Shown here: in pieces, positions 45,705-64,000 of the stretch | How the letters are laid out: every line of letters starts with the position of its first letter | How positions within the stretch are numbered: the first letter of the stretch is position 1 | NCBI RefSeq assembly: GCF_034120055.1 | Contig: NZ_CP139368.1 | Location: 3,844,001 to 3,908,000 of the forward strand | Reading direction: 5' to 3' | Length of the DNA stretch: 64,000 nt | Source of the DNA: Microbacterium rhizosphaerae | GTDB lineage: Bacteria > Actinomycetota > Actinomycetes > Actinomycetales > Microbacteriaceae | Position numbers and translations under genes: made by a program | Notes under the pieces: generated by a model | The model's database searches: none | What the model was told of the DNA's origin: nothing | Seen by the model: only the letters and a program-made list of their open reading frames with translations

Positions 45705-45710
45705 GACGAA

Positions 45711-45746
45711 GGAGGGGGATGCCGTCGGCCGACGGCATCCCCCTCC
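45711..45746. terminator. 36-bp perfect palindrome (bidirectional terminator)
   Basis: Two perfect 18-base arms with no unpaired loop, starting GGAGGGGGAT, between the convergent SDR and MFS genes. No T-run. Very stable in either strand's RNA. Confidence 0.75.
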
Positions 45747-45764
45747 CGGATACTCCGGTCGCGT

Positions 45765-47048: not shown

Positions 47049-47174
47049 GAGGCTTCCTTGCCTGTGCCCGGCGTTCGGGCGGCCGGGGTCTGCAGCGATT
47101 CAACCAACGGGCATCCGCCTGTCCCATGGGCTGCGGCGATTCAACCCATCGCGCAGCCCGATGAAGAACCCGCG

Positions 47175-48428: not shown

Positions 48429-49691
48429 ATGGTCAGGGAGTCAGCACTGCGTTTCGGCGCACAGACGGACGAGGTGACGAGCCTCCTCAGGATCGTCAAC
48501 ATGGTGCGCACGGGCGAGGCCACGACCCGCCCAGAGATCGGTCGCCTCACGGGACTGGGACGTGGCGTCGTCACCCAGCGCGTCGAGGCGGCGATCGCCA
48601 TGGGCTTCCTCGAGGACGGCGCTTTCGGCCCCTCGTCGGGTGGTCGCGCACCCCGCACGCTCGGATTCCGTTCGGACCGCGGTCTCATCGTGGTGTGCGC
48701 GCTCGGCGCCCTGCACATCCACGTGGGACTGGCATCGCTCGACGGCGTGATCATCGCCCAGGATCACCGGGCATGGGAGATCGTCCGGGGGCCGGCCGAG
48801 ACCCTCGAGGCGACGATCGCGATGGTCGAGAAGCTCCTCGCGACCACCGATGGACGCCCCGTCTGGGCCGTGACGGTGGGCGTGCCGGGCCCGGTGGACT
48901 TCGAGTCCGGTACGGTCGTCGCCCCGCCGATCATGCCGGGCTGGAACGGCTTCGATGTGCGGCGCCGCTTCGAGCAGCACTTCCAAGCGCCCGTCTGGGT
49001 CGACAACGACGTGAACATCCTGGCGCTGGCCGAGCGGGTGCACCGCCGGGACGACGCCATCGACCTCATCTATCTGAAGGTCGGCACGGGTATCGGAGCC
49101 GGGCTCCTCTCGCACGGACACCTGCACCGCGGTGCCAACGGCGCTGCCGGAGACATCGGGCACGTCCGCGTGGGCGACTCGGAGGTGATCTGCCGCTGCG
49201 GCAAGATCGGCTGTCTCGAGGCCGAAGCCGGCGGCTGGGCGCTTGTGCGGGATGCCGAGCGAGCCATCGGCGACGGCGCGGTCGGGGTGCTGAAGACCCA
49301 CCACGACGCCGGTGAGCAGCTCACTCCCGAGCTCATCTGCGTGTCGGCGCGCGACGGGGATGCCCTGGCGATCGCGCTCGTGCAGCGCTCCGCGCGGCTC
49401 GTCGGCGAGTCCATCGCGGCGCTCGTCAACATGTTCAACCCGTCGGTGATCGTGATCGGCGGTGCGATGGCGGGTGCCGGAGAGATCTACCTCGCCGGGG
49501 TGCGGCAGCGGGTGTATGAGCTGTCCCTTCCACTCGCGACGCGGGATCTCGTCATCCAGCCCTCGAACAACGACGTCGCCGAGCCGCTGCTCGGCGGGGC
49601 GGAGCTCGCGATCGAGCAGCTGTTCGACGTGACCTTCCCCCGCTGGTTCGCGTCCGGCGTGCCGACGATCGAGCGGGTGCGCGCCGCCTGA
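48429..49691 (+). CDS. ROK-family transcriptional regulator
   Basis: 420 residues. N-terminal winged helix (TTRPEIGRLTGLGRGVVTQR) and a ROK sugar-binding domain with VGTGIGAGLLSHGHLHRGANG, the zinc motif CRCGKIGCLEAEAGG and GHVRVG. ROK repressors release DNA on binding a sugar. First gene before the deglycosidase fusion and probably the regulator of the C-glycoside locus. Confidence 0.9.
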   Translation: MVRESALRFGAQTDEVTSLLRIVNMVRTGEATTRPEIGRLTGLGRGVVTQRVEAAIAMGFLEDGAFGPSSGGRAPRTLGFRSDRGLIVVCALGALHIHVGLASLDGVIIAQDHRAWEIVRGPAETLEATIAMVEKLLATTDGRPVWAVTVGVPGPVDFESGTVVAPPIMPGWNGFDVRRRFEQHFQAPVWVDNDVNILALAERVHRRDDAIDLIYLKVGTGIGAGLLSHGHLHRGANGAAGDIGHVRVGDSEVICRCGKIGCLEAEAGGWALVRDAERAIGDGAVGVLKTHHDAGEQLTPELICVSARDGDALAIALVQRSARLVGESIAALVNMFNPSVIVIGGAMAGAGEIYLAGVRQRVYELSLPLATRDLVIQPSNNDVAEPLLGGAELAIEQLFDVTFPRWFASGVPTIERVRAA

Positions 49692-49724
49692 GTCGTCTTC
49701 CGCGCATCGGCGAGCCGATACTTC

Positions 49725-49753
49725 TTCTGTTATTCGACTTAAGTGTGTAGGTT
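49725..49753 (+). promoter_or_regulatory. Candidate promoter with operator TCGACTTAA for the fusion gene
   Basis: A -35-like TTCTGT and -10-like TAGGTT are 17 bases apart, and TCGACTTAA (49734-49742) lies in the spacer, within an 8-bp palindrome ACTTAAGT. The same nonamer occurs upstream of the 62.3-kb deglycosidase operon. Confidence 0.5.
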
Positions 49754-49785
49754 GTGATCTGAAGTAGGGATCACGAGGAGACCGC

Positions 49786-51360
49786 ATGCTGCCGATCCTG
49801 CGCGAGGGGGCGCTGGCCTGGACCGACCGTGGCATCGCCCTGCGACTGTGCCTCCCGTGGATCCGCTCACTGCCCCTCTCGTCCATCACCGCCATCGAGG
49901 TCGCGGTGGACGGCGAGCCGCTCACGGTTGTCGTCTGCGTCGACGGACGCGCCGTTGCCCCAGGCGAGCTCGCCGACGAGGACGGCTGGTGGTTCGTGCA
50001 GGACCGCCTCGTGCTCGAGGCTCCGCGGTCGCCACGCCCGCTCCCGTCGCTGCCGGGACGTCGTCCGAAGCCTCGCGCCCCGGACGGCCGGCTGCGCCCC
50101 GGGGTGCACGACGTCTCCGTGTCGTTCCGGCTCGTCATCCCCTACCTCCCGGCGGGCCCCGACGCACCGTTGGTGCTGCCGTTCCACGCCGAGGCGCAGC
50201 TCATCCTGGATGCGCCGCGCTCGCCCGCTGCGCGAGCCGCCGAAAGCCCCAGAATCCCCGGAGAGGCGGAGGCCCGGCCCGCAGAGGTCCGACCGCGCGA
50301 GGATTCTCCGAGGTCGGAACGGCTGCCGAGCGGCTGGACGCTCGGCGCGAGCGCCTTCAACTGGACGCCCGTGGTCATCACGGCCGAGCGGCCGGCTCCT
50401 GACATCGCGGTCGGGATCGTCGCCGACGGCGTCGCCGACGTCATCGAGGTCGAGCTGGGTCAGCTGTGGCGCTCGTTCCCCGACCCCGCGGACGCGGATG
50501 CCGACGACCTGCGCGCGGCGCTGGAGGCCGTCGGCGGTTCGGTGAGCATCGTCGGCGCCAGCATCGACGACTGGCGCACCCCGACCCGGCACCGGACGGA
50601 CGAGGAACGGCTCGCCTTCCTCATGCCCCAGCTGCGCGCCGCGCACCGCCTGGGCGCCCACGGCGTGCGTCTGCCGATCGGGCAGGCGGGTGCCGCGCTG
50701 CTGCGTCGCCTGCAGCCCACGCTCGACGAGCTGGACCTCATCCTGTACGAGGAGGTGCAGGGCCACCAGGCGCCGGGAAACCCGGCCGTCGCGGCGGCGT
50801 ACGAGACGATCGCGCGGCTGGACGACCCGCGCATCCGTCTGCTCGTCGACATCAGCATGCTGATGCCGGCGCTCCCGACGTCGTACCTCGGACTCCTGCG
50901 CGATCGTGGAGTGCCCGCATCCCTCGTCGACGCCCTCGAGTCGGACTGGCGGGAACCCGCGATCGGCGCGAAGGTCGTGCGACTCCTGCAGTCAGGTGGT
51001 GTGCCGCCGGCAGTGCACACGGCCTACATGAACCTGCTCGTGCGGTTCGGGCGATCGGATGCGGCCGACCTGCGCAGCATCCTTCCGCGAACCGGAGCCT
51101 TCCATCTGAAGTTCTGGGATCTCGACGACGCCGATGGACGCGTGTCGAGCCCGATCCGCGATCTCGGCGCCCTGCTCGTCGAGCACGGCTGGCGCGGCAC
51201 GCTCACGAGCGAGTGGGGCGGGCACGAGTGGCTCGAGGACCTCGATGCCACCGAGACCACGCGCGCCCACCTCCGCCTCGCCCGCGCGGCACTCGCACAG
51301 GGCGCGCAGACCATGACCGAACAGAAGGAGAATCCATGCCGTACGCCGTCGGCGATCTGA
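49786..51360 (+). CDS. Fused C-glycoside deglycosidase: beta-domain (DUF6379) plus TIM-barrel alpha-like domain
   Basis: 524 residues. Residues 1-~165 align with the two free beta subunits in this window: LALRLC-LPWIRSLPLS, a VDG turn, DGWWFVQDRLVLE and VSVSFRLVIPYL. After a charged linker, residues ~185-515 form a sugar-isomerase-like TIM barrel with plausible Mn ligands Glu (LILYEEVQGH), Asp (RLLVDISM), His (GAFHLKFWD) and Glu (LTSEWGGH). In described C-glycoside deglycosidases alpha and beta are separate chains, so this is a natural fusion in beta-alpha order. It is the first gene of a plus-strand operon, and its 3' end overlaps the next gene by 25 bases. Confidence 0.8.
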   Translation: MLPILREGALAWTDRGIALRLCLPWIRSLPLSSITAIEVAVDGEPLTVVVCVDGRAVAPGELADEDGWWFVQDRLVLEAPRSPRPLPSLPGRRPKPRAPDGRLRPGVHDVSVSFRLVIPYLPAGPDAPLVLPFHAEAQLILDAPRSPAARAAESPRIPGEAEARPAEVRPREDSPRSERLPSGWTLGASAFNWTPVVITAERPAPDIAVGIVADGVADVIEVELGQLWRSFPDPADADADDLRAALEAVGGSVSIVGASIDDWRTPTRHRTDEERLAFLMPQLRAAHRLGAHGVRLPIGQAGAALLRRLQPTLDELDLILYEEVQGHQAPGNPAVAAAYETIARLDDPRIRLLVDISMLMPALPTSYLGLLRDRGVPASLVDALESDWREPAIGAKVVRLLQSGGVPPAVHTAYMNLLVRFGRSDAADLRSILPRTGAFHLKFWDLDDADGRVSSPIRDLGALLVEHGWRGTLTSEWGGHEWLEDLDATETTRAHLRLARAALAQGAQTMTEQKENPCRTPSAI

Positions 51361-51887
51361 CCGAATCGTTCACGCTGCCTCGGGCGGGGGGCGGTGAGGT
51401 GACCGTCGCAACCGCGGGGGCGCCCGCGACCGTCGTCATCTGGACGTGCAACCACTGCCCCTATGCCCTCGCCTGGCATGACCGGCTGCAGCAGGTGGTG
51501 CGCGACTACGCGGACCGCGGGGTCGTCTTCGTGCAGGTCAACGCCAACGACGAGCAGAAGTACCCCGCGGACTCCTTCGCCGAGATGGAGCGGCGCGTGG
51601 CGGCGGGTGAGTTCGCGTCCGACTTCCTGCGGGACGCCGAGCAGTCCCTGTCGAAGCAGTGGGGCGCGCGCGTCACGCCGGATGTCTTCGTGCTCGATCC
51701 GCAGGGCCGGATCGTCTACAAGGGGGCCCCGGACTCGGATCACGACGACCCGACGCAGAACGCGCAGCACCTGCGGAACGTCCTCGATGACGTGCTCGCC
51801 GGCCGCCCCGCCCGCCTCAGCGGCACGCGCGCGGCGGGCTGCAAGATCAAGTGGACCGTCGACGATCAGCCGAACCCCTATGTCTGA
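51336..51887 (+). CDS. Thioredoxin-like (AhpC/TlpA-fold) protein
   Basis: 183 residues. A CxxC pair in WTCNHCPYALAW is followed by a redoxin fold (VVFVQVNANDEQ, WGARVTPDVFVLDPQGRIVY). No signal peptide, so cytoplasmic. GAAGGAG precedes the ATG, which lies inside the fusion gene. Its place in a deglycosidase operon is unexplained. Confidence 0.85.
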   Translation: MPYAVGDLTESFTLPRAGGGEVTVATAGAPATVVIWTCNHCPYALAWHDRLQQVVRDYADRGVVFVQVNANDEQKYPADSFAEMERRVAAGEFASDFLRDAEQSLSKQWGARVTPDVFVLDPQGRIVYKGAPDSDHDDPTQNAQHLRNVLDDVLAGRPARLSGTRAAGCKIKWTVDDQPNPYV

Positions 51888-52191
51888 GAAGCTGACCGTC
51901 CTGGGCTGGTCCGGATGCCCGTCGACCGGGATGGTGGACACGTGGGTGGCCGACGTGTGCGCGGGGGCCGGCATCCAGCCCCCCGCACTGGAGCTCGAGT
52001 ACGTCGAGACGGACGAGGATGCGGCGGCCCGCGGCTTCATCGGATCGCCGACGTTCCTCCGCGACGGCGTCGACCTGTTCCCCGAGCCCGGCGCACCGCC
52101 GGCGTTGACGTGCCGGCTCTATCGGCGCCGCGACGGGCGCCCGTCGCCCCTGCCGGATCCCGCGGACTTCGTCGAGGCCCTGCGACGCTGA
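51880..52191 (+). CDS. Small thioredoxin-fold protein
   Basis: 103 residues. VLGWSGCPSTGMVDTWV has a single Cys at the usual active-site turn, followed by a short alpha/beta fold and GFIGSPTFLRDGVDLFPE, where the cis-Pro region of thioredoxin folds is expected. Overlaps the previous gene by eight bases (ATGTCTGA). May work with its neighbour as a redox pair. Confidence 0.72.
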   Translation: MSEKLTVLGWSGCPSTGMVDTWVADVCAGAGIQPPALELEYVETDEDAAARGFIGSPTFLRDGVDLFPEPGAPPALTCRLYRRRDGRPSPLPDPADFVEALRR

Positions 52192-52207
52192 GTGCCCTGC
52201 TGCCGGA

Positions 52208-52222
52208 CGGGCGCGCCGCCCG
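52208..52222. terminator. Hairpin CGGGCG-n3-CGCCCG between convergent genes
   Basis: 6-bp stem with a 3-base loop between the thioredoxin-like gene and the convergent dehydrogenase gene; no T-run. Confidence 0.4.
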
Positions 52223-52273
52223 CAGGCGCCGGAGCATCGAGCGCCCGTGCGCGACGGCCGGGCGGAACGGAGC

Positions 52274-53266
52274 TCAGCGCGGCTGGAGACCAGCCGCCCG
52301 GTAGATGTCGTCGACGGTGCGCATGGTTCCGACCCCGCGGGCCGCATCGAGGATGCTCGGCGAGCCGTCGTCCAGCACCGCGACGAGGTGCTCCAGCTGA
52401 CGCACGTAGCTGTTCTCGCCCTCGACGGCCTTCTCGTCGATGAGGACGTCGTCGCCCGCGGTCACCCGCAGCGTCGCTCCCCACTGCGGCACGATGACAC
52501 TCGTCGCCTCGAGGTGGGCCGCCGACCCGGCGACCCGCATCCACATCGCACCCTGGTCATCCCCGATGAACGATGCCCGCAGCTGCACCGGCCCGCCGGA
52601 CGGCAGCCGCAGCACGGCATCGGTCTGCAGGTCGATCCGCGGGTCGTCCTCGAAGAGCACCGCCGTCGCCGACTCGACGACGGGCTCGCCCCAGGCGGCG
52701 CGCATCAGATCGACCGCGTAGCATCCGACGTCCATCACGGCCCCGCCGCCGAGGTCTCCGTCGAGCCGGATGTTGCCGGGCTTCACGACGAAGTGGGGGA
52801 TGCTGAAGTCGAAGTCGACCCGCTCGATGTCGCCCAGCGCACCCGAGGAGATGACTTCCAGCAGCCGCTGCGTGAACGAGTGCAGCCGGTAGTGGAAGCC
52901 GACGAACGCGCGCCGGCCGGTCGCCGCGGCCGCGTCGGCGATCGACGCAGCGGTCGTGCCGTTCACCGACAGCGGCTTCTCGCACAGGACGTGTTTTCCG
53001 GCCTGCAGCGCCCGCACGCCCCACTGGGCGTGCACGATGGGCGGCAGTGCGAGGTACACGAGGTCGATCTCGGGGTCGGACAGGATCGCCTCATAGTCGC
53101 CGTGCTGCGGCAGGTGCAGCCGCTCGGCGAACGCCCGCGCACGTTCCGGATCGCGCGCACCGATCGCGACGACCCGGGCGCCGTCGACCTCACGGGAGGG
53201 TTCGACCATCGCCCGCTCGGCGATGCCGCCGGCACCCAGGATGCCGATCCTCAGTTCGGATGCCAT
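52274..53266 (-). CDS. Gfo/Idh/MocA-family NAD(P)-dependent dehydrogenase
   Basis: 330 residues. GILGAGGIAERAM Rossmann motif, VLCEKPLSVNG (the EKP motif with catalytic Lys), and YAVDLMRAAWGEP-type C-terminal domain of the MocA fold. Last gene of the minus-strand C-glycoside operon. Probably oxidises or reduces the C3 of the sugar or keto sugar. Confidence 0.9.
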   Translation of the reverse strand: MASELRIGILGAGGIAERAMVEPSREVDGARVVAIGARDPERARAFAERLHLPQHGDYEAILSDPEIDLVYLALPPIVHAQWGVRALQAGKHVLCEKPLSVNGTTAASIADAAAATGRRAFVGFHYRLHSFTQRLLEVISSGALGDIERVDFDFSIPHFVVKPGNIRLDGDLGGGAVMDVGCYAVDLMRAAWGEPVVESATAVLFEDDPRIDLQTDAVLRLPSGGPVQLRASFIGDDQGAMWMRVAGSAAHLEATSVIVPQWGATLRVTAGDDVLIDEKAVEGENSYVRQLEHLVAVLDDGSPSILDAARGVGTMRTVDDIYRAAGLQPR

Positions 53267-53269
53267 TGG

Positions 53270-54160
53270 TCAGCCCTCGTGGTTGTAGTACGGCCAGGGC
53301 AGGAACCGGCGCTCGCCGCGACGGTCGGGACCCTCGAGCGACACCGAGCCCGTGGCGGCCCACTCGACACCGCGCGGGAACATGCGGATGAACTCGATCC
53401 GGCGGAACGTGTCGATGTCGTGCCCGATCGTGATCGTGAAGGAGCGGCCGGCGCCGTACTCGTTGATCCACGCGATCGGCTGGTCGGTGTTCATTCCCGG
53501 GAGCGCGGCGATGCCCTCCGGCGGGATCGCCACCGGGTAGTGCGACATCGGCCAGATCGGCGCCTTCTGGTACGACTCGAGGTCGTCGTAGGTCGTCAGC
53601 AGCACCTGCGCGCCGTCGGCGATCTCGACGCCGGTGAGGATGTCGTCTCCCGTCACGGTCCACCGAGCGCTGATGCCCTCGGTGATCGCGTGCCGAGGCT
53701 CGACGGTGTCCAGCCGCGCCTCGCCCCACGGGCGCGGACGCAGCCCGTCGGCGACCGTCATCCGCGAGCCGCGCATGACGTTGTACTCGTCGGGGTAGCC
53801 CCAGTCGTCCTCTTGAGCGGCGGATCCGTGGAACCACACGATGCCCTTGCCGTCGTCGTGGACGAAGGTCAGGAGCGCAGCATCCGTCTCGGCGCCGAAG
53901 CCCACCGCCTTCTCGTGATAACCGTCGCGCCCCTCGAACACCACGATCACGACGTCGTACTTGTCGATGATCGCGGCGCCGAGACCCCGCGGATCCTCGA
54001 CGACCCGTACGGTGAACCGGCCGGTGTCCTCGAGGAGCGCCGTGATCCACTCGTTGTGCTTGCGGAAGCTGCGGTGCTCGTTGTCGTGCTCGCGGGTCAT
54101 GTGTCCCGACAGGATGAGGACGCGCAGACCGTCCGATTCGTGCTCTGCCATGTCGTTCAT
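53270..54160 (-). CDS. ThuA-like domain protein
   Basis: 296 residues. ThuA (amidotransferase-like) fold: VLILSGHMTREHDNEHRSF at the start, DVVIVVFEGRDGYHE, a GKGIVWFHGSA elbow and the late GRSFTITIGHDIDTF. ThuA proteins act on trehalose/trehalulose or 3-keto sugars. ATG shared with the stop of the upstream barrel gene (ATGA); ATG 54151 is an alternative start. Confidence 0.82.
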   Translation of the reverse strand: MNDMAEHESDGLRVLILSGHMTREHDNEHRSFRKHNEWITALLEDTGRFTVRVVEDPRGLGAAIIDKYDVVIVVFEGRDGYHEKAVGFGAETDAALLTFVHDDGKGIVWFHGSAAQEDDWGYPDEYNVMRGSRMTVADGLRPRPWGEARLDTVEPRHAITEGISARWTVTGDDILTGVEIADGAQVLLTTYDDLESYQKAPIWPMSHYPVAIPPEGIAALPGMNTDQPIAWINEYGAGRSFTITIGHDIDTFRRIEFIRMFPRGVEWAATGSVSLEGPDRRGERRFLPWPYYNHEG

Positions 54161-55146
54161 ACCCGGGCGACGCGCCTCTCGACGATCGGCTCCAGCACCT
54201 TCTGCACGTACCAGCCGCTGACCATGGCGCTCTCGGCAGGCCGCGGGCTCTGGTCCGACTCGACCACGATCCAGCCCGAGTACGAGGAGTCGGCGACGGC
54301 CTGCGCGAAGGCCTCGAAGTCGATCAGTCCGCCTTCATCGGTCGGCTCGAAGAACCAGCGCTCGATCCGCCGGGAGCCGCCTTCGGTGCGCACGAACTGC
54401 TCGGCGTGGGGCGTCAGCGCTTCCGCGTCGTCGACGACGTCGTGCGCGTTCTTGAGCTGGATGTGCCACACGCGGTCGGCATGGCGACGGAAGAACTCCA
54501 CCGGCTCGATGCCGGCGACGGCGAGCTCCGCCGTGTCGAGCGCGAGGCCGACGTGGTCGGGATCGGTGGCGGCGAGGAGCCGGTCGAGGCCGTCCTCGAG
54601 GCGCAGCGCCGACAGGAAGTCGACGTGCAGCGCCAGTCGCACGTCGTGCTCGGCGATACGGCGGCCCACCTCGTCCCAGAGCACGGCGAGCGTGCCGATC
54701 TGCTCATCGCTGAGGGCGCCCGTCTGCCATGCGGAGCCGGCGGGGCGCACGACGAGGACATCGCCGCCGAGGCGATGCACCGCATCGGCGAACCACACCG
54801 CGGTGGCGGCGATCTGCTCGCGTGCATCCGGATCCAGCGGATCGGGACCGCGACCCATCTCCACATCGAATCCGACGGACGGGTCGTAGACGTAGCTGCT
54901 CACGGCGTCGAGCGCGCACTCGGCGAGGAACGAGCGCAGATCCTCGAGCGATCCGTAGAGGTGCGCGATCTCATCGGGGCTGCCGAACGGCTCCCAGGGA
55001 CCGAAGCTCACCGCCGTCAGCTCGACCCCGCTGAACCCGCTGATCGAGATGGTCTTGAACGCGCGCTCATGGTCGCGCCGGCGAACGAACGCATCGATGT
55101 TGGTGTCCCACTGGTTGAGGGCGTAGCCCCACCGGATGCCGCTCAC
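54157..55146 (-). CDS. Xylose isomerase-like TIM-barrel protein (divergent metal site)
   Basis: 329 residues. Barrel strands carry LALHVDFLSA, VGLALDTAEL, RVWHIQLKNAH and SGWIVVESDQSP. The first metal position holds His in place of the usual Glu, as in the next gene upstream, so metal use or chemistry may differ from classical isomerases. GTG start overlaps the upstream stop (GTGA). Confidence 0.85.
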   Translation of the reverse strand: MSGIRWGYALNQWDTNIDAFVRRRDHERAFKTISISGFSGVELTAVSFGPWEPFGSPDEIAHLYGSLEDLRSFLAECALDAVSSYVYDPSVGFDVEMGRGPDPLDPDAREQIAATAVWFADAVHRLGGDVLVVRPAGSAWQTGALSDEQIGTLAVLWDEVGRRIAEHDVRLALHVDFLSALRLEDGLDRLLAATDPDHVGLALDTAELAVAGIEPVEFFRRHADRVWHIQLKNAHDVVDDAEALTPHAEQFVRTEGGSRRIERWFFEPTDEGGLIDFEAFAQAVADSSYSGWIVVESDQSPRPAESAMVSGWYVQKVLEPIVERRVARV

Positions 55147-56120
55147 TTCGCACCCTCCCCGTAGATGCCGTCCAGCACGTTCTTGGCGTACCACCGCGCG
55201 ATCGCCGTGCTCTCGGAGTAGTCGCCGCCGAGCTTGTCGGCCTTGTCGTGCTCGACGCTGATCCAGCCGGAGTACCCGTGATCGCGCACCGAGCGCATCA
55301 TCGACTCGAAGTCGACGAGACCCTCGGCGGTGCCCATCTCGTAGAACCACTTCTCGGTCGTGACCGCCGAGAGCTCGGCATCCGGCCAGAGTCGGTAGTC
55401 CTCGTTCACGTCCTTCGTGCGCGTGTCCTTGAAGTGGAACCCCGTCACCCGATCGTGATGGGCCTCGTAGACGTCCACCGGGTCGACATCCGCGATGCAG
55501 TGCTGGGCGGTGTCCACGAAGAACTTCACGTAGTCCGGATCGGCGTAGTCGTAGAACGTGTCGATCTGGGCACGCGTGCGGATGCCGCCGTAGAACTCGT
55601 GGTGGCACGTGAGGTTGACCCCGTACTCCTGCGTGATCCGTCCGACCTCGCCCCACACGTCCGCCGCGTGCTTGAGTCCGTCGTCGCTGACGCCCACCTC
55701 GTCGAAGTACCTCGAGCCCGGCATGACGATGATGTTGTCCAGCTGGATGCCCGACCACCGGTCCATCGTCACCTTGAAGTCCTCGAGGATCGTCGGATGG
55801 GTCGCGGGGACCTCCGGGGCGTACCGCTCGGGCGTGTAGTAGACGCCGTGGAACGTGTTCACGATGCGCTCCAGCCCCTGCTCCTGCACGAACTCCTGGT
55901 AGTTCGCAACGGACCCGTACTGCTCGAGGATCTGCCAGAACCGGAAGTCGAACGTGTCGATCGCGTCGAATCCGACGGCTGCGACCTGACGCAGGAACCG
56001 GGTCATCGCCAGCCGCGACTGCCATTGATCGATCGGGCCGGCCGGACCCTGGCTGCGCCAGTGGTCCATGTAGCTCCACTTGATCTTCGGGGGCTCGGTG
56101 GTCGGCATCGTCATCGTCAT
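55143..56120 (-). CDS. Xylose isomerase-like TIM-barrel protein (divergent metal site)
   Basis: 325 residues. Barrel motifs VNLTCHHEFYGG, VKFFVDTAQHC, VTGFHFKDTRTKD and SGWISVEHDKAD. The N-terminal IKWSYMDHWRSQGPAGPIDQ is unlike the other barrels of the locus. As with its neighbour, the canonical first Glu is replaced by His. Function unknown; isomerase, epimerase or lyase on a keto sugar is inferred from context. Confidence 0.85.
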   Translation of the reverse strand: MTMTMPTTEPPKIKWSYMDHWRSQGPAGPIDQWQSRLAMTRFLRQVAAVGFDAIDTFDFRFWQILEQYGSVANYQEFVQEQGLERIVNTFHGVYYTPERYAPEVPATHPTILEDFKVTMDRWSGIQLDNIIVMPGSRYFDEVGVSDDGLKHAADVWGEVGRITQEYGVNLTCHHEFYGGIRTRAQIDTFYDYADPDYVKFFVDTAQHCIADVDPVDVYEAHHDRVTGFHFKDTRTKDVNEDYRLWPDAELSAVTTEKWFYEMGTAEGLVDFESMMRSVRDHGYSGWISVEHDKADKLGGDYSESTAIARWYAKNVLDGIYGEGAK

Positions 56121-56173
56121 GTCTGCTTTCGTGTGGAGTGGAGAGGAGCCGACCCTCCGGCTGGAAGACCGGC

Positions 56174-57175
56174 CTACTTCGTCGAGAAGGCGGCGTCGAA
56201 GGCGGCGGCGGGCGGGGTGATGGCGTTCAGCTCGCGGACGAACGCGATGGCCTCCGGTGCGCCCTGCAGGCGGTCCATGCCGGCGTCCTCCCACTCGACC
56301 GAGGTCGGGCCGGTGTAGCCGATGAAGTTCAGCGCCCGGAAGATCGGCTCCCACGGCACCTCGCCGTGCGCGGTCGACACGAACGTCCAGCCGCGGCGCG
56401 GGTTGTTCCAGGGCAGGTGCGAGCCGAGCACCCCGTTGCGGCCGTCGAGGTTCGTGACGGACTCCTTCACGTGCACGTGGAAGATGTGGTCGGCGAAGTC
56501 GAGGATGAACGCCACCGGGTCCAGCTGCTGCCACATGAAATGCGACGGGTCGAAGTTGATGCCGAAGCTCTCCCGGTGGCCGATCGCCTCCAGTGTCGCC
56601 TTCGCGGTCCAGTAGTCGTAGGCGATCTCGGACGGGTGCACCTCGAGCGCGAACCGCACGCCGACCTCTTCGAACACGTCGAGGATCGGGTGGAACCGGT
56701 CGGCGAAGTCCTGGTAGCCGGCGGCGATCCACTCGTCGGATGCCGGCGGGAACATCGCCACCGCCTTCCAGATCGACGAGCCCGTGAACCCGGTCACCGT
56801 CTTCACGCCGAGCTTCGCGGCGAACCGGGCCGTCATCTTCAGCTCCTCGGCAGCCCGCTGCCGCACTCCCTCCGGGTCGCCGTCGCCCCACACCCGATCG
56901 TTCAGGATGTCACGGTGCCGCTCGTCGATCGGGTCGTCGCAGACGGCTTGACCCGCGAGGTGGTTCGAGATCGTCCACACCTTCAGGCCGTTGCGCTCGA
57001 GGATGTCCTTGCGGGACTGCACGTACTCCTCGTCATCCCACCGCCCCACATCGATGTGGTCGCCCCAGCAGGCGATCTCCAGGCCGTCGTAGCCCCACTC
57101 GCCGGCGAGGCGAGCCACCTCCTCGAACGGCAGATCGGCCCACTGTCCGGTGAACAGCGTGATCGGACGCGTCAT
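56174..57175 (-). CDS. Sugar phosphate isomerase/epimerase-like TIM-barrel protein
   Basis: 333 residues with all four expected metal ligands: Glu in [11 protein letters not shown], Asp in [12 protein letters not shown], His in [10 protein letters not shown] and Glu in TSVEWEDAG. Typical of IolE/DTE-type epimerases. [20 protein letters not shown] opens the barrel. Preceded by a repeat-containing 111-base gap. Confidence 0.9.
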
Positions 57176-57187
57176 TGCTTCTCCTTT

Positions 57188-57300
57188 GTCATTCTTCGGT
57201 CGTTGAGCGGGCGCAGCGAGTCGAAACGTGGTGATCGATCGACGTCGGCGGCATGCCGCGTTTCGTCTCGTCGCTGCGCTCCTCGCTCAACGACCGACCT
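57188..57300. repeat. Inverted pair of the CGTTGAGCG/GTCTCG repeat family
   Basis: Between two operon genes: TCGTTGAGCGGGCGCAGCGA near 57203 and its inverted partner TCGCTCAACGACCG near 57285, with TTTCGTCTC between. The pair can form a long hairpin in the operon mRNA. Same family as 26742-26965 and 62370-62730. Confidence 0.8.
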
Positions 57301-58905: not shown

Positions 58906-58914
58906 GGCGCTTCC

Positions 58915-59745
58915 TTACGCGAAGGTATCGGTGAACGTGTCGTGCGGAACCGGCGGGACGGGCTCGAGCTTCTGCACCGTCCGCGGGCTGTAGGGATGGT
59001 TCGTGCTCGGGACGGGCTCGTCGGCGGGCGGCATGAACACCGGCTTGCCGTCATCCCCGAAGTACATGAGGTCGAGGTCGAACGCGCCCTGGTTCTTCAA
59101 GCCGAAGCTGACCCAGTTCTCCTCGAACGGCGCGCGGGCGAGCTCGTAGCAGCGGAACTTCCAGAACTTCCACTCGCCGTCCTGCTTCAGGAAGTCGATC
59201 GCGTACTTGCACCACACCCAGTGCGCCCAGACCTTCTTGCCGAGCACCTCCTCCGGCGAGTACATGTCGGGGAACGCCTCGGCGACCGCAGGGTCGGTCA
59301 GACCCGACTCGGTGCCGGCCATCAGCCACACACCCTTCGCAGTCCGGCCGTCGGCGGCGACCTCGATCACGGGCGTGGTCGTGGCGTGCAGGATGAGCTT
59401 GCCCTCGGGCGCCGGCCGATCCCGGTGGTATCGCGTCACGCTCTCCCACGTCGTGTACTGACCGGCGTTGGTGTAGCGCGCGCGGATGCCTTCCGTGCCC
59501 TCCTTCACCCACAGCGGGATGATCTGCTCGTCCTGGAACGCGTTGTGCAGGTACATGTAGCGGTTGAAGAGGTTCTCGACCCGCCCGCGGTCCTCGGCGC
59601 GCTGCGCGAGGCGCCGAGCATCGGCCACCTCCTGCCGGAGCCGCGCGAGCTCGGCCTGCAGATCTTCGACGGTCGCTGAGCCGGTCGAAGCGTCGCTCTT
59701 CGACGCCTCGACGGGCTCGGGCACCAGTGCACGCAGATCAGACAT
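58915..59745 (-). CDS. NTF2/SnoaL-like fold protein
   Basis: 276 residues. After an N-terminal coiled-coil-like stretch (VEDLQAELARLRQEVADARR), the SnoaL-like domain shows NLFNRYMYLHNAFQDEQIIP, HATTTPVIEV and WKFWKFRCYE. Residues ~7-25 (LVPEPVEASKSDASTGSATV) are encoded by an inverted pair of the GGTC..GAGCC..TCGA repeat at 59671-59725. Shares eight bases with the upstream barrel gene (ATGTCTGA). Catalytic or structural role unknown. Confidence 0.83.
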   Translation of the reverse strand: MSDLRALVPEPVEASKSDASTGSATVEDLQAELARLRQEVADARRLAQRAEDRGRVENLFNRYMYLHNAFQDEQIIPLWVKEGTEGIRARYTNAGQYTTWESVTRYHRDRPAPEGKLILHATTTPVIEVAADGRTAKGVWLMAGTESGLTDPAVAEAFPDMYSPEEVLGKKVWAHWVWCKYAIDFLKQDGEWKFWKFRCYELARAPFEENWVSFGLKNQGAFDLDLMYFGDDGKPVFMPPADEPVPSTNHPYSPRTVQKLEPVPPVPHDTFTDTFA

Positions 59746-60781
59746 CCGCGGTCTCCTTCTGGGCGACCGCATCCTCGATCGCACCGCGCATGAGCGCGTG
59801 CTGCTTCTTCACGAGGTCGATGGGGTCTGCTTCGCCGAGGTCCTGGAACGCGTGCCCCTCCCACTCGCTGGAGAGGAACCCCTGGTAGCCGCCCTCGACG
59901 AACTGGCGGACGATGCGCGGGATGTCCATCGCCGGCTCCTCGCCGTCCGCGCCGATGTCGTAGAACTTCGCGTGCACATGGAAGATCTGCGGCATGATGT
60001 CCAGCCACTCCTCCGGCGGCACCAGCCCGTGCATGTTGAACGCCAGCCGGGTGAACGGGCCGAACGTGAGCGGGTCGACGCCCTCGCCGCTCAGGTAGTC
60101 CTCGAAGGTCTGATTGCGCACGTGCATGGGGGTGGGCTCGTGCCAGATCTCGTCCATGACCGCGAAGTGCTTCGGGTCCATGCCCATCTTCTCCAGCTGC
60201 GCGAGCAGCGTCGGCGACAGGCTGTGCATGGTCGACGAGAAGTCCGCGGTGAAGCCCAGGCGGTCGCTGCCGAGCTCGTCGTACAGCTCGCGGATGCCGA
60301 GCACTTTCGGGTCGTTCGGACCCTGCGGCGCGTGGATCTCGTAGCCCAGACGCTGGTCGTACTCCTCCGCGAGCGGCAGCAGGCTGCGCAGCAGCTCGCG
60401 GCCGGCCGACCGGATGACGACCCGCGTGAAGCCGAGCGTGTGCGCGGTCTTCAGCTGGCGGGCGAGGAAGTCGTGCTCCTCGTCTGGGGTCATGTCGCGG
60501 TCCTTGCGACGCCCCATGTCGAGGTTCGTGCCCACCGCGCTCGGCTCGAGACCGTACTTCTCCAGCGAGTCGAACCACAGCTTCACGAACGCACTGTCGA
60601 CGTCCGGGTACGTGCGCAGCAGCTGCGCGATGTTGAACTCCACACCCGGGCCGATGCCGTTCTCGGCGACGGCGGCGATCAGCGTCTCGGGCGTGTACAG
60701 CCCCGCCGCGAACTCGCTCGTCATCGAGTAGAGGGTCGTGCCGAGCCGGATGCCGGTTCCGGCGATGCCGTCCGCGGTCAT
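59738..60781 (-). CDS. C-glycoside deglycosidase alpha-subunit-like TIM-barrel protein
   Basis: 347 residues. TTLYSMTSEFAAGLYTPETL begins the barrel as in its paralogue at 60778. Metal ligands Glu (GYEIHAPQG), Asp (GFTADFSS), His (IFHVHAKFYD) and Glu (SSEWEGHAF) are all present; the His two residues after the first Glu is placed like the proposed catalytic His of CarB-type enzymes. ATGA overlap with the upstream gene. Confidence 0.82.
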   Translation of the reverse strand: MTADGIAGTGIRLGTTLYSMTSEFAAGLYTPETLIAAVAENGIGPGVEFNIAQLLRTYPDVDSAFVKLWFDSLEKYGLEPSAVGTNLDMGRRKDRDMTPDEEHDFLARQLKTAHTLGFTRVVIRSAGRELLRSLLPLAEEYDQRLGYEIHAPQGPNDPKVLGIRELYDELGSDRLGFTADFSSTMHSLSPTLLAQLEKMGMDPKHFAVMDEIWHEPTPMHVRNQTFEDYLSGEGVDPLTFGPFTRLAFNMHGLVPPEEWLDIMPQIFHVHAKFYDIGADGEEPAMDIPRIVRQFVEGGYQGFLSSEWEGHAFQDLGEADPIDLVKKQHALMRGAIEDAVAQKETADV

Positions 60782-61920
60782 GCGCGTGCTCCTTCCGTGT
60801 CGGGCAGCCAGGCCGCCAGTTGTGCGCGGGCGTCCGCGGCATCGGTCACCATGCGGCTGCCCGCGTCCCGAGCGGCGGAGCGCTGCACCTTCTGCTCGCC
60901 CGCGATGATCTCGAAGGGCGACTGCCAGTGGTTCCAGTGCCACCCCTCGTATTCGCTCGAGATGGCGCCGTTGTAGCCGTTCTCCACGAGCAGGCGGATG
61001 AGATCCCGCACCGGCACCGAGGGCTCCTCGCCCGACTCGTCGATGCCGAAGAACTTGCCGTGCACGTGCCTGATCCACGGCATGATCGCCAGCCAGTCGT
61101 CGACGCGCGCGGGCCCGAACAGGCCCGTGCCGTTGATGCCGAAGTCGATGCCCAGGTCGGGGCGGCCGTTCTCGGCCGCCAGGCGGATGAAGGAGCCCAT
61201 GCGCTGGGCGTGATCCTGCTGGTCCTTCGGCGGGCCCTGCTCGTAGTAGGAGTTCCACAGGTCGACGACCCTGCCGAGCAGCTCCTCCGACGCGCCGCGG
61301 CGTCGATACGCCTCGACGAGCGACGGTGCGAACCCGACGGTCGTGGCGCCCCAGTCCATCGTGAAACCGAGGAACGGTGAGCCGATCTTCTCGTAGCGAT
61401 CGCGCAGGGCCAGGATGCGGGGATGCGACGCGTACTGGTCGGCGTGCACCTCGAGCGCGAGGGTGACGCCGTAGTGCTCGGCCACCGGCGCGAGGGCCTC
61501 CATCGAGTCCGGCTCGATCGAGATCTGCACGCGCGCGATCGGGAAGCCGAGCTTGGCGGCGGCCTCGATCTGACGGCGCATGTACTCGATGAGCTCGTCC
61601 TGGTTCAGCAGGCGATCGCGGTGGATTCCGATGTCGGCGTTGATCGCGAGCGAGGTCTGCACGAGCCCGGTCTCCGCGATGAGGTCGCGGAACCACGCGG
61701 CGTAGGCGTCGTCGATCTGGGGGAAGCCACGGAAGCTCGAGAAGCCGATGATCTCGAGGCCCGGGCCGAAGCCCTCGGCTGCACTCTTGCGGATGAGGCC
61801 TTCGAGGTCGTACTCGCGGCCGTGGAACGCGCGCGTGAAGCTGTACAGCGTCACGCCCTGGATCGGTGCCCCCGGTTCCTGCCCTTCGACAGGCTCAGGG
61901 ACCGAAGTCAGATCGGTCAT
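60778..61920 (-). CDS. C-glycoside deglycosidase alpha-subunit-like TIM-barrel protein (CarB-like)
   Basis: 380 residues, directly coupled (ATGA) to a beta-subunit gene, the pairing expected for CarB/CarC. Barrel opens with VTLYSFTRAFHGREYDLEGL; metal ligands Glu (LALEVHADQY), Asp (GFTMDWGA), His (RHVHGKFFG) and Glu (ISSEYEGWHW). Residues 6-13 (SVPEPVEG) are encoded by a copy of the roughly 22-bp repeat (61881-61903). Would break the C-C glycosidic bond of a 3-keto C-glycoside. Confidence 0.85.
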   Translation of the reverse strand: MTDLTSVPEPVEGQEPGAPIQGVTLYSFTRAFHGREYDLEGLIRKSAAEGFGPGLEIIGFSSFRGFPQIDDAYAAWFRDLIAETGLVQTSLAINADIGIHRDRLLNQDELIEYMRRQIEAAAKLGFPIARVQISIEPDSMEALAPVAEHYGVTLALEVHADQYASHPRILALRDRYEKIGSPFLGFTMDWGATTVGFAPSLVEAYRRRGASEELLGRVVDLWNSYYEQGPPKDQQDHAQRMGSFIRLAAENGRPDLGIDFGINGTGLFGPARVDDWLAIMPWIRHVHGKFFGIDESGEEPSVPVRDLIRLLVENGYNGAISSEYEGWHWNHWQSPFEIIAGEQKVQRSAARDAGSRMVTDAADARAQLAAWLPDTEGARA

Positions 61921-62312
61921 GCCGCCACCGCCTTCATCTTCTTGGTGTCGTGCTCCTCGATGTGAAGCACCTCGTTCTCGCCGATGACGATGTACGGGAT
62001 GTACAGGGTGAGGTCGACGCTCACCTCGTGTTCGGCGCTCGGGTCGACGGGCAGGTCTCCGGAGAGCACGGCGGAGTCCGTGGGGAACCACCACTCGTCG
62101 ACGTCGTCGACCATCTCGGCGAAGGTGCGGGAGCGGCCGTTCATCTCCCAGCGCAGGGAGTCGGTCGACGCGGCCACGCCGTCGATCGTCAGCCCGGCGC
62201 CCGCGATGCAGGATGCCGGAAGGGCCCGGTACCAGGGGATGCGCACCTCGACGGCGGCGCGAAAGCCGTCCGTCCGGAGCGTGCCGTGCTCGATGATGCG
62301 ATCCGGGATCAC
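61917..62312 (-). CDS. C-glycoside deglycosidase beta-subunit-like protein (DUF6379, CarC-like)
   Basis: 131 residues. FRAAVEVRIPWYRALPASCI, a DG turn, EWWFPTDSAVLSGD and VSVDLTLYIPYIV follow the family layout. GTG start with GAGGAGG five bases before it. First gene of the long minus-strand operon, behind a promoter that carries two TCGACWTAA motifs. Confidence 0.85.
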   Translation of the reverse strand: MIPDRIIEHGTLRTDGFRAAVEVRIPWYRALPASCIAGAGLTIDGVAASTDSLRWEMNGRSRTFAEMVDDVDEWWFPTDSAVLSGDLPVDPSAEHEVSVDLTLYIPYIVIGENEVLHIEEHDTKKMKAVAA

Positions 62313-62321
62313 AAGTCCTCC

Positions 62322-62330
62322 TCGACTTAA
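62322..62330. promoter_or_regulatory. Operator candidate TCGACTTAA (site 1)
   Basis: Lies between the predicted -10 box and the start of the operon, about 15 bases downstream of the -10. Identical to the nonamer upstream of the fusion gene at 49734. Confidence 0.55.
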
Positions 62331-62343
62331 ATCTTGTTTCTAC

Positions 62344-62372
62344 AGTCTATTGTTTGAAATCGACATAAGCAA
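62344..62372 (-). promoter_or_regulatory. Sigma-70-type promoter of the deglycosidase operon
   Basis: On the minus strand TTGCTT (62367-62372), a 17-base spacer and TAGACT (62344-62349). The region is strikingly AT-rich for this genome. A second operator-like TCGACATAA (62360-62368) overlaps the -35 end and spacer. Confidence 0.6.
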
Positions 62373-62730
62373 GCGCCGCGAGTGAGACGAGGTCGCGAAT
62401 TCCACGTTTCGTCTCGCTCGTTCCTCGCTCGCTCAACGGCCGGCGGGGGAACGGTCGCTGAGCGAGCGCCAGCGAGACGAAACGAGGTCGCGGGTTCCAC
62501 GTTCCGTCTCGCTCGTTCCTCGCTCGCTCAACGGCCGGCGGGGGAACGGTCATTGAGCGAGCGCCAGCGAGACGAAACGAGGTCGCGGGTTCCACGTTCC
62601 GTCTCGCTCGTTCCTCGCTCGCTCGACGACCGGCGGGGGAACGGTCGTTGAGCGAGCGCCAGCGAGACGAAACGAGGACGCGGGTTCCACGTTCCGTCTC
62701 GCTCGTTCCTCGCTCGCTCAACGGCCCGTA
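62370..62730. repeat. 95-bp tandem repeat array, ~3.7 copies
   Basis: GTTCCTCGCTCGCTC recurs at 62420, 62515, 62610 and 62705, each exactly 95 bases apart, with near identity between units. Each unit contains inverted arms (TTGAGCGAGCGCCAGCGAG against CTCGCTCGTTCCTCGCTCG), so each can fold as a hairpin. No spacers and no gene. It separates the oxidase gene from the deglycosidase operon on the same strand and fills most of the 426-base gap. Confidence 0.92.
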
Positions 62731-62738
62731 TCGCTCGC

Positions 62739-64000
62739 TCACCGACCAGGGTCGGCGAGCTCCGCCGCGATACGTCGGGCGCCCCGTACGGCGAGCGCGA
62801 CCGACGTGAGCGTCGGGTTGCACGCGGTGGCCGTCGGGATGACGCCGTTTCCGGCGACGAAGACGCCGGGCGCCGACCACACCTCGCTGTCCGGACCGCA
62901 CACACTGGTGCCGTCGTCCGTCGCTCCCATCCGGACGGTGCCCTGGTAGTGCAGCGAGGCGCCGAGCGGCATCGTGAACGGGCGCTCGTCGATGGGCTCC
63001 CCCACCGCGTTGCCGAGACGCACGATCTCCGCGCGGGCGCGGTCGAGCACCTCCCGGTCGCGGTCGGTCAGCCGATAGTGCAGGCTCATCGACGGCATGC
63101 CGTACGCATCCGTCTCGTCGTCCGAGAACTCGACGCGGTCGTCCCACTGCAGGTCCTTCGCGGTGAACAGGCCCAGGCCCACGATCGAGCCGGGAACCGC
63201 GGGATCGTCCTCGGCGAGCGGGACGGGCGAGGCATCCAGCTGCATGATCTGGCCGTGCCACGGCTCGGCATCGGTGAACGGCACCCAGCTGACCCCGCTC
63301 TGCTCGCTGAGGGCGCCGGCGACGATGTCGTGCTCGTCGGACTGCCCCGCGGGTGCGGCCGCAGCGGAGCCGCCGGGGGCGGCGTCCCGGATCCGCGACG
63401 CGAACACGACCTGCGACTGGTCGTTCAGCATGCGACCAAGGGCGCGGGGGCGGATGCCCGAGGCGAAGAGCACTTGGGGCGTGCGCAGCGCGTCCGCGGC
63501 CACGACGACGAAGCGGGCCCGCACCTCGTGCACCTCTCCGGTGCGCTGATCGCGCACCTCGACGCCCGCCGCGCGGCCGTTCTCGAGGAGCACGCGGGTC
63601 ACGAGCGAGTCGTCGAGCAGGGTGAAATTCGGGTTCCGGCGGGTGACGTCGCCGAAGACGACGTCCGAGCCCGACCACACGAGACGGCCGTCCTCCCGGC
63701 GATGCACGGCGAGCGGCATGCGCTGGACGCGCCGGTCGGCCGGGCGCCCGGCGTCGACGGCTGCCGCGAGGCGATCGCGCACGAGCTCGGTGAAGGGCGC
63801 GCCGTCGAAGGCGTGCGTCGTGACGCCGAGCAGGCGGTCGCCCTCATCCAGCAGCTCGTCCAGGTCGTCGAGGAACGCGATGCGCTCGCTCTCGCCCGGT
63901 CGCGGGCACGCGGCCGTCCAGTGCGCGCCCATGCCGCCGACGTTGCTCGAGAAGGCGGCGACCGGCAAGCCGTCCTCGCCGGGGAACGCGAAGCCCTCGT
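62739..64000 (-). CDS. GMC-family FAD oxidase, C-glycoside 3-oxidase (CarA)-like, N-terminus beyond right edge
   Basis: About 419 residues visible; the frame is open to the right edge, so the FAD Rossmann N-terminus is missing. SSNVGGMGAHWTAACPRPGE, FVVVAADALRTPQVLFASGI, the active-site region SLHYQGTVRMG and VAGNGVIPTATACNPTLTSV with the His/Asn pair mark a pyranose-oxidase-like GMC protein. CarA enzymes of Microbacterium oxidise C3 of C-glycosides, making them substrates for CarBC. The adjoining beta/alpha genes support that assignment over a generic GMC oxidoreductase. Confidence 0.85.
   Translation of the reverse strand, partial: EGFAFPGEDGLPVAAFSSNVGGMGAHWTAACPRPGESERIAFLDDLDELLDEGDRLLGVTTHAFDGAPFTELVRDRLAAAVDAGRPADRRVQRMPLAVHRREDGRLVWSGSDVVFGDVTRRNPNFTLLDDSLVTRVLLENGRAAGVEVRDQRTGEVHEVRARFVVVAADALRTPQVLFASGIRPRALGRMLNDQSQVVFASRIRDAAPGGSAAAAPAGQSDEHDIVAGALSEQSGVSWVPFTDAEPWHGQIMQLDASPVPLAEDDPAVPGSIVGLGLFTAKDLQWDDRVEFSDDETDAYGMPSMSLHYRLTDRDREVLDRARAEIVRLGNAVGEPIDERPFTMPLGASLHYQGTVRMGATDDGTSVCGPDSEVWSAPGVFVAGNGVIPTATACNPTLTSVALAVRGARRIAAELADPGR

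What the first reader, a model, noticed from the sequence alone, without database searches (positions are those of the whole stretch)
48429..64000. Expanded C-glycoside cleavage locus with three beta domains and six TIM barrels
The region has a CarA-like oxidase, two free CarC-like beta subunits, a fused third, and six sugar-isomerase-type barrels, plus two C3-type dehydrogenases, a ThuA protein and a ROK regulator. Known C-glycoside systems need one oxidase and one or two alpha/beta pairs, so this set may serve several aryl C-glycosides or include new keto-sugar steps. Seen: family features and operon structure. Known: CarA/CarBC chemistry from Microbacterium and relatives. Inferred: substrate range and division of labour.
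Basis: partly seen in the sequence, partly recalled or inferred. Interest (0 to 1): 0.85.

Follow-up and report, generated by a model that had tools for sequence, protein, structure and literature searches.

The report
C-glycoside locus with rewired third deglycosidase
This is a soil-bacterial gene cluster for breaking sugars off plant C-glycosides; two of its cleaving enzymes are close relatives of known ones, but the third, a fused one, belongs to a conserved branch that keeps the metal site yet has lost the residues used to break the bond, so it probably does a different job.

Summary
In detail: one CarA/G3Ox-type oxidase (cut by the window end), two free CGDB beta subunits, a fused third, six sugar-isomerase barrels, two Gfo/Idh/MocA dehydrogenases, ThuA and ROK. 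The locus is not specially expanded: it is orthologous to the Arthrobacter globiformis locus that holds AgCGD2, and CGD-positive family members have a median of four beta-domain matches. g057/g055 are AgCarB2/AgCarC2 orthologues, g058/g059 a second canonical pair; g053 is related to a solved 2-hydroxy-3-keto-glucal hydratase, so the ordinary route to glucose looks complete.

The surprise is the fused protein (49786-51360), one of a conserved clade (fused, split, or with beta on the opposite strand). The five metal ligands are kept, but catalytic His149 is Gln, its partner Glu307 is Gly, and the beta tyrosine needed for C-C cleavage is Ile in 80 of 80 covered sequences (own plus 79 of 80 loci), while canonical subunits beside it keep all three. 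In 398 family genomes strong hits occur in 19 of 27 with CGDB and 0 of 371 without. It sits beside the ROK gene and shares a rare promoter motif with the CGD operon. I infer a non-lyase, metal-dependent role on keto-C-glycosides (isomerase/epimerase favoured), or sensing. No activity was tested.

The parts
48429..49691 (+). ROK-family regulator, next to the fused gene
   Evidence: PF00480 196.8 bits; ROK present in 69 of 69 relatives' loci with full flanks
49734..49747 (+). Candidate operator TCGACTTAAGTGTG, about 40 bp before the fused gene
   Evidence: One of only two matches of TCGACWTAAGYRNG in the 4.06 Mb genome; GACWTWAG enriched at this place in relatives
49786..51360 (+). Fused beta-alpha CGD-like protein with rewired active site ('Q-type'): beta about 1-145, linker of low confidence 146-177, lid-bearing TIM barrel about 180-510
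51336..51887 (+). Redoxin/AhpC-TSA-like protein, overlapping the end of the fused gene
   Evidence: PF08534 56 bits
52274..53266 (-). Gfo/Idh/MocA oxidoreductase (Gfo1), candidate 3-keto-glucose reductase
   Evidence: PF01408, PF22725; NCBIfam matches all below cut-off; function inferred
53270..54160 (-). ThuA-family protein
   Evidence: PF06283 94.8 bits
54157..55146 (-). IolE-like TIM barrel (TIM1)
   Evidence: PF01261 69.5 bits; IolE TIGR04379 86 bits, below its cut-off
55143..56120 (-). IolE-like TIM barrel (TIM2), not CGD alpha by sequence
   Evidence: PF01261 66 bits; only two IolE sequences matched in the PDB
56174..57175 (-). TIM barrel (TIM3), candidate 2-hydroxy-3-keto-glucal hydratase
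   Evidence: 8ro4 '2-hydroxy-3-keto-glucal hydratase' E 8.7e-34, 2zds 511 bits
57287..58492 (-). Gfo/Idh/MocA oxidoreductase (Gfo2), levoglucosan-dehydrogenase-like
   Evidence: NF052479 351 bits against cut-off 650; PF22725
58489..58905 (-). CGD beta subunit, AgCarC2 orthologue
   Evidence: PF19906 53.3 bits; 7dnm_B 197 bits
58915..59724 (-). SnoaL_4-domain protein between the alpha and beta genes of the AgCGD2-type pair
   Evidence: PF13577 57 bits; present in 40 of 69 full-flank loci
59738..60781 (-). CGD alpha subunit, AgCarB2 orthologue
   Evidence: 7dnm_A 620 bits over 338 residues
60778..61920 (-). CGD alpha subunit of the other canonical pair; start codon by inspection
   Evidence: 7dnm_A 182 bits; catalytic and metal residues kept
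61917..62312 (-). CGD beta subunit of the other canonical pair
   Evidence: PF19906 50 bits; PWYR tyrosine kept
62360..62373 (+). Second candidate operator TCGACATAAGCAAG, upstream of the beta-alpha operon
62739..64000 (-). FAD-dependent glycoside 3-oxidase (CarA/PsG3Ox type); complete gene runs to 64295
   Evidence: PF00732/PF05199; 7qf8 834 bits, 7dve 782 bits

Best explanation
The region is a conserved actinobacterial locus for using plant C-glycosides as carbon. Oxidase g060 makes 3-keto-C-glycosides; two canonical alpha/beta deglycosidases (g058/g059 and g057/g055) split the C-C bond; TIM3 (g053) hydrates the released 2-hydroxy-3-keto-glucal; a Gfo/Idh protein reduces 3-keto-glucose to glucose. 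The fused protein g046 is a third, divergent deglycosidase whose active site was rewired: the metal cage is intact, but the elimination base (His149 to Gln), its partner (Glu307 to Gly) and the beta-subunit oxyanion tyrosine (to Ile) are gone across its clade. It is therefore most likely not a His-dependent C-C lyase. Because it still keeps a beta domain, which in known CGDs shapes the aglycone pocket, and a metal cage of the kind that barrels such as the 3-keto-glucoside 4-epimerase YcjR use without those two residues, I commit to a metal-dependent isomerase/epimerase of keto-C-glycosides that still carry their aglycone (about 0.4), made beside the ROK regulator and under the same promoter motif as the CGD operon. 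Shown by calls: families, orthology, residue changes, conservation, synteny, motif. Inferred: every reaction in this organism.
Against: No activity data. Q-type proteins keep lid, metal cage and beta domain, so another residue (Glu322 or His480 of g046) could serve as base and the protein could still be a lyase. A more distant relative (G232) keeps the PWYR tyrosine in its neighbouring beta while its alpha has the Gln/Gly motifs, so the beta change is not essential to the new role. The YcjR comparison is a loose alignment in which YcjR has a gap at the His149 column and its Asp is doubtfully placed. One genome (G055) has two canonical CGD pairs and no strong Q-type hit, so the protein is not indispensable; one search scored only the best three candidates per genome. 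The motif is in both upstream regions in only 23 of 57 loci that have both. The model's coordinates could not be inspected.
Confidence: 0.62

Rival explanations
1. The Q-type protein is still an eliminase, with another base, for a substrate class the canonical pairs do not take (other C-glycosides or keto-O-glycosides).
For: Metal ligands, lid helices and beta domain are kept. Invariant Glu322 and near-invariant His480 sit next to metal ligands in sequence. PuCGE Y39F lost effectively all C-glycoside activity but showed only a minor loss with 3-keto-phlorizin, in the paper's words. DfgCD of the dfg cluster is reported to deglycosylate O-glucosides (PMC11170127 passages).
Against: The O-glycoside eliminase AtOGE needs the equivalent His134 (H134A devoid of activity, PMC10628242), and the Q-type clade lacks it.
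Confidence: 0.25
2. The Q-type protein is a non-catalytic or slow sensor/inducer partner of the ROK regulator that binds C-glycosides.
For: It follows ROK on the same strand (ROK within 1.5 kb upstream in 75 of 80 loci), apart from the CGD operon, and shares its promoter motif.
Against: Five metal ligands conserved, which a pure binding protein need not keep; ROK proteins usually sense sugars themselves (recalled).
Confidence: 0.2
3. The Q-type protein hydrates the 2-hydroxy-3-keto-glucal released by the CGDs.
For: The CGD product is this compound (PMC8563793), and in levoglucosan catabolism a Mn2+-stimulated sugar-isomerase-like protein hydrates it (PMC7676230 passages).
Against: g053 already matches a solved 2-hydroxy-3-keto-glucal hydratase and its relatives are in 60 of 69 full-flank loci; a small glycal would not need the beta domain (inference).
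Confidence: 0.1
4. All of it is an ordinary multi-CGD locus and the third pair is a decaying duplicate.
For: The alpha reading frame looks interrupted in a few relatives (G226, G364; L097, L116), and the own protein has an inserted stretch near residues 85-105.
Against: Conservation across the 120 best homologues (53% identity or more) with near-invariant substitutions and metal ligands.
Confidence: 0.03

Closest known systems
AgCGD1/AgCGD2 locus of Arthrobacter globiformis NBRC 12137 (PMC8563793; PDB 7DNM, 7DNN)
   Same: Same gene order: ROK, Q-type pair, TIM3, Gfo2, bC2, aB2, aB1, bC1, GMC1, TIM4 (L071). Contains the exact AgCGD2 alpha; g057 620 bits to it.
   Different: Here the Q-type beta and alpha are fused; in L071 the beta is on the opposite strand. 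ThuA, SnoaL_4 and the IolE-like barrels were not matched in L071.
PsG3Ox cluster of Pseudarthrobacter siccitolerans 4J27 (PMC10646112)
   Same: Oxidase with two CGD_B and two CGD_C neighbours (passages); same organisation in L117.
   Different: The passages I saw name four CGD homologues; the Q-type pair of the same contig (L117) is not among them.
Microbacterium testaceum fused C-glucosyl deglycosidase (PDB 8QRZ, 8UN2)
   Same: Beta and alpha in one chain, so fusion as such is not new. The own genome's g074 has that architecture with a canonical active site.
   Different: Only 20% identity to g046 by Foldseek; g046 belongs to another clade.
YcjR, 3-keto-glucoside 4-epimerase of E. coli (PDB 6WN6)
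   Same: Barrel of the same fold; Foldseek E 4e-7; in a loose alignment, acidic and His residues at most metal-ligand columns and no His149/Glu307 equivalent.
   Different: 262 residues, so no beta domain and no room for the lid; 13% identity.
AtOGE O-glycoside eliminase and the Lgd levoglucosan pathway
   Same: Same chemistry: 3-oxidation, beta-elimination, hydration, reduction (PMC10628242, PMC7676230 passages).
   Different: AtOGE uses a His base; neither has a beta subunit in the passages seen.

Membership tests
C-glycoside oxidase/deglycosidase (CarABC/PurABC type) locus | GMC-type glycoside 3-oxidase | tested here: met
   g060: 7qf8 834 bits, 7dve 782 bits
C-glycoside oxidase/deglycosidase (CarABC/PurABC type) locus | Neighbouring alpha (TIM barrel) and beta (CGDB) genes | tested here: met
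   g058/g059 and g057/g055; a SnoaL_4 gene lies between g057 and g055
C-glycoside oxidase/deglycosidase (CarABC/PurABC type) locus | C-C cleavage of 3-keto-C-glycosides | not testable with these tools
   needs an assay
CGD (C-glycoside deglycosidase), applied to g046 | CGDB-type beta domain plus lid-bearing barrel | tested here: met
CGD (C-glycoside deglycosidase), applied to g046 | Metal ligands Glu147, Asp179, His269, Lys271, Glu305 | tested here: met
   80 of 80 covered sequences
CGD (C-glycoside deglycosidase), applied to g046 | Catalytic His149 and Glu307 | tested here: not met
   Gln and Gly in 80 of 80; 119 of 120 and 119 of 119
CGD (C-glycoside deglycosidase), applied to g046 | Beta tyrosine (PuCGE Tyr39) | tested here: not met
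   Ile in 80 of 80; equivalence to PuCGE Tyr39 taken from the aligned ranges, not printed residue by residue
YcjR-type 3-keto-glucoside epimerase, applied to g046 | Metal cage without the CGD His/Glu pair | tested here: inconclusive
   Consistent in a loose alignment; fold match weak
YcjR-type 3-keto-glucoside epimerase, applied to g046 | Epimerisation of a 3-keto-glycoside | not testable with these tools
   needs an assay
2-hydroxy-3-keto-glucal hydratase, applied to g053 | Sequence relationship to the solved enzyme | tested here: met
   8ro4_A E 8.7e-34 over residues 17-327
2-hydroxy-3-keto-glucal hydratase, applied to g053 | Hydration of 2-hydroxy-3-keto-glucal | not testable with these tools
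   needs an assay

The most novel reading that the evidence does not exclude
The Q-type beta-alpha protein is a new enzyme activity grown out of a C-C lyase: a metal-dependent isomerase or epimerase of 3-keto-C-glycosides with the aglycone still attached, which turns non-gluco or mis-oxidised C-glycosides into forms the canonical deglycosidases can cut. It would be a general, so far overlooked step of soil C-glycoside catabolism, present even in A. globiformis NBRC 12137, whose AgCGD2 was crystallised.
Probability: 0.35. Interest if true: 0.75.

Novelty: new variant of a known kind. Interest (0 to 1): 0.56.

Why it matters
C-glycosides are hard to degrade and their soil catabolism is only partly worked out; the oxidase and the lyases have been solved, the rest of the cluster much less. 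A conserved third 'deglycosidase' without the lyase residues, in the same locus as a crystallised enzyme, gives a defined gene to test: it either does an unknown keto-sugar reaction or senses the substrate. It also warns that counting CGD homologues overestimates lyases, and it offers a natural experiment on which residues make a barrel a C-C lyase. The shared promoter motif and constant ROK partner give a testable regulon.

Tried and rejected
Rejected: 'expansion' (median of 4 CGDB matches per positive genome in the family sample); fusion as the novelty (8QRZ/8UN2 already fused); g046 as the hydratase (g053 fits better); pseudogene. The first motif guess, CGACTTAA, did not hold in relatives (2 of 80 and 0 of 57). 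The wider GACWTWAG did, but it was found in the same upstream sequences in which it was then counted; it is also raised before MFS2 genes (5 of 42) and slightly before ROK (3 of 80); in the window alone its 2 hits are not rare (13 of 100 shuffles reach 2); the own-genome pattern was drawn after seeing both own sites. The first genome-contig scan with the single protein found nothing; the alignment query confirmed 90 relatives and kept 80. In the class sample the profile matched 5 of 394 genomes, but the stretches that I inspected in G673 and G683 carry canonical motifs or none, so Q-type proper is in 3. Paper searches: nothing in the listings or passages that I saw describes the Q-type pair; supplementary files could not be read, subscription papers are mostly absent from the library, and Furlanetto 2024 was seen only as a reference. 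C6/C8 assignment by Mori's determinants gives mixed signs: g057 has Met at 249 like AgCGD2 (aB2 class 63 of 63) and g058 has Gly (aB1 class Gly in 60 of 61), but g055 has a longer beta7-beta8 loop than AgCarC2, a trait listed for the C6 enzymes.
Full report
What is in the window. My gene calls (by codon bias; names g0xx are mine) give a plus-strand unit, ROK (48429-49691), fused beta-barrel g046 (49786-51360), redoxin (51336-51887) and a small protein without a Pfam match (51880-52191), facing a minus-strand run of genes that goes from beyond the window end to 52274: seventh barrel g061, oxidase g060, beta g059, alpha g058, alpha g057, SnoaL_4 protein g056, beta g055, Gfo2 g054, barrels g053, g052, g051, ThuA g050, Gfo1 g049.

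Where it comes from. The window is at 3844001-3908000 of a single 4,057,055-base contig. A genome of the same genus (G258) has a contig of 73,947 bases, the length of a record named Microbacterium sp. K24, so the genus is Microbacterium by inference.

The canonical part. g057 is 620 bits to AgCarB2 (7dnm_A) and g055 is 197 bits to AgCarC2 (7dnm_B). g058/g059 are a second, more distant pair. Both alphas keep the metal ligands Glu147, Asp179, His269, Lys271, Glu305 and the His149/Glu307 pair described for AgCGD2 (PMC8563793). The Arthrobacter globiformis NBRC 12137 locus L071 holds the exact AgCGD2 alpha sequence in the same gene order, so the window locus is an orthologue of a published one. 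A second CGD locus lies beyond the window (80491-84886 in continued window coordinates): fused canonical g074, alpha-like g075, beta g076, oxidase g077.

Not an expansion. CGDB is found in 27 of 398 genomes of the family; those 27 have 1 to 11 matches, median 4. In 394 genomes of the class it is in 5.

The fused third protein. 664 homologues at E <= 0.001 were found among 7,997 scored candidates, a capped set; the best 120 are listed. In those 120 the metal ligands are kept (E147, D179, H269, K271 in 120 of 120; E305 in 119 of 119 covered), while His149 is Gln in 119 of 120 (the other, P0102, reads EEIGAQQ), Glu307 is Gly in 119 of 119 covered and the beta tyrosine is Ile in 119 of 119 covered. 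In the named loci fetched with the family alignment (80 of 90 relatives kept), the own sequence and 79 of the 80 loci gave rows (L068, cut by a contig end, fell out of my sorting rule; L097 is in two alpha pieces): the three changes are in 80 of 80 covered sequences. The canonical classes aB1, aB2, FUScan, aB3 keep His149 in 61/61, 62/62, 6/6, 8/8 and Glu307 in 61/61, 63/63, 4/4, 8/8, and the betas bC1, bC2, FUScan, bC3 keep Tyr in 53/53, 65/65, 6/6, 2/2 (0 to 3 gapped rows per class left out). Other substrate-contact positions change too: Tyr17 to Phe (75 of 75 covered) and Ser124 to Gln (80 of 80). The profile alignment to 7dnm_A places the Gln on His149, which settles a one-residue doubt in the single-sequence alignment.

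Association. Strong hits (55% identity or more) are in 19 of 398 family genomes, all within the 27 CGDB-positive ones; Fisher p 1.7e-26, which ignores kinship, and one search scored at most the three best candidates per genome. Eight CGDB-positive genomes have no strong hit: four have a single CGDB match, three (G016, G232, G292) have the divergent form, and G055 has two canonical pairs. In 69 loci with full flanks, a canonical CGD alpha is within 10 kb in 65 (not in L051, L052, L097, L100), ROK in 69, TIM3 in 60, Gfo2 in 61, a GMC oxidase in 54, SnoaL_4 in 40.

Shared promoter motif. GACWTWAG (in some loci part of a TGACA...TGTCA dyad) occurs within 250 bp upstream of the Q-type gene in 47 of 80 loci and of beta C1 in 35 of 57, against 13 of 1,600 random windows of the same loci; of the other gene classes only MFS2 (5 of 42) and, weakly, ROK (3 of 80) are raised. 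Of 103 sites in 1.59 Mb, 85 lie in these two regions; both regions carry it in 23 of 57 loci. In the own genome TCGACWTAAGYRNG occurs twice, at exactly these two places. The motif was chosen on these data, so the p-values are inflated; the own genome was not in the discovery set, but its pattern was written after seeing its sites. I infer that the ROK protein binds it.

Pathway. The CGD product is 1,5-anhydro-D-erythro-hex-1-en-3-ulose (PMC8563793), which in levoglucosan catabolism is hydrated and then reduced to glucose (PMC7676230 passages). g053 is related to a solved 2-hydroxy-3-keto-glucal hydratase (8ro4) and two Gfo/Idh proteins are present, so the ordinary route needs no contribution from g046.

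What g046 does. The proposed lyase mechanism uses His149 as base (PMC8563793) and, in PuCGE, Tyr39 of beta for C-glycosides much more than for the O-glycoside phlorizin; AtOGE needs its equivalent His (PMC10628242 passages). g046 lacks all of these, so a standard elimination is unlikely. Metal cage and beta domain are kept, which argues for catalysis on a substrate with an aglycone. YcjR, a 3-keto-glucoside 4-epimerase, shows neither residue in a loose alignment. I therefore favour an isomerase/epimerase role at about 0.4, with altered lyase (0.25), sensor (0.2) and hydratase (0.1) as rivals. None is shown.

Literature seen. PMC8563793: outline with abstract, results parts 1-2 of 3, and discussion. 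PMC12724307: abstract and discussion. PMC10628242, PMC10646112, PMC11673046, PMC10807413, PMC7676230, PMC11170127, PMC12141560: passages only. Others: search listings only. No supplementary file was read.

Noticed in passing
window 62384-62726: Tandem array of period 95 bp (about 3.6 units, 95% alike) with internal inverted repeats between the oxidase and the beta gene; a related-looking stretch lies at 57176-57286 (by eye).
   Followed up: partly
G000:C1:3924491-3928886 (outside the window): Second CGD locus in the same genome: fused canonical deglycosidase g074, alpha-like g075, beta g076 and another GMC oxidase g077.
   Followed up: partly
g075 and relatives (aB3 class): Metal ligand His269 is Gln in 8 of 8 aB3-class alpha subunits while His149 and Glu307 are kept: a second, different active-site variant.
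   Followed up: no
window 58915-59724: SnoaL_4 protein between the alpha and beta genes of the AgCGD2-type pair; relatives in 40 of 69 full-flank loci; role unknown. A second SnoaL-like gene lies past the window end.
   Followed up: no
window 41734-48191: Cyclase-like, FAH-like, LysR, SDR, MFS and catechol-dioxygenase-like genes beside the locus (names partly by eye); dioxygenase or FAH relatives in 56 of 69 full-flank loci, suggesting linked aglycone breakdown.
   Followed up: partly
L070-L073, L075, L076, L078, L081-L083, L085, L090, L091, L095, L113, L115, L117: The Q-type beta gene lies on the strand opposite to the Q-type alpha gene (17 of 80 loci, mostly Arthrobacter and Pseudarthrobacter).
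   Followed up: partly
L122, L123 (genomes G364, G226); L097, L116: The Q-type gene is split over several reading frames or pieces in these genomes; decay and sequencing error not told apart.
   Followed up: no
L068, L047: Contigs labelled Stenotrophomonas maltophilia and Planococcus carry this actinobacterial locus; mislabelled or contaminated assemblies are likely (not tested).
   Followed up: no
window 58915-59784 and 61830-61920: N-terminal 'PEPVEA/PEPVEG' stretches in g056 and g058 look like short interspersed repeats read in frame (by eye).
   Followed up: no
PMC12141560 against L071: The review passage assigns AgCGD2 to Microbacterium trichothecenolyticum; the exact alpha sequence is in Arthrobacter globiformis NBRC 12137, as PMC8563793 states.
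   Followed up: yes
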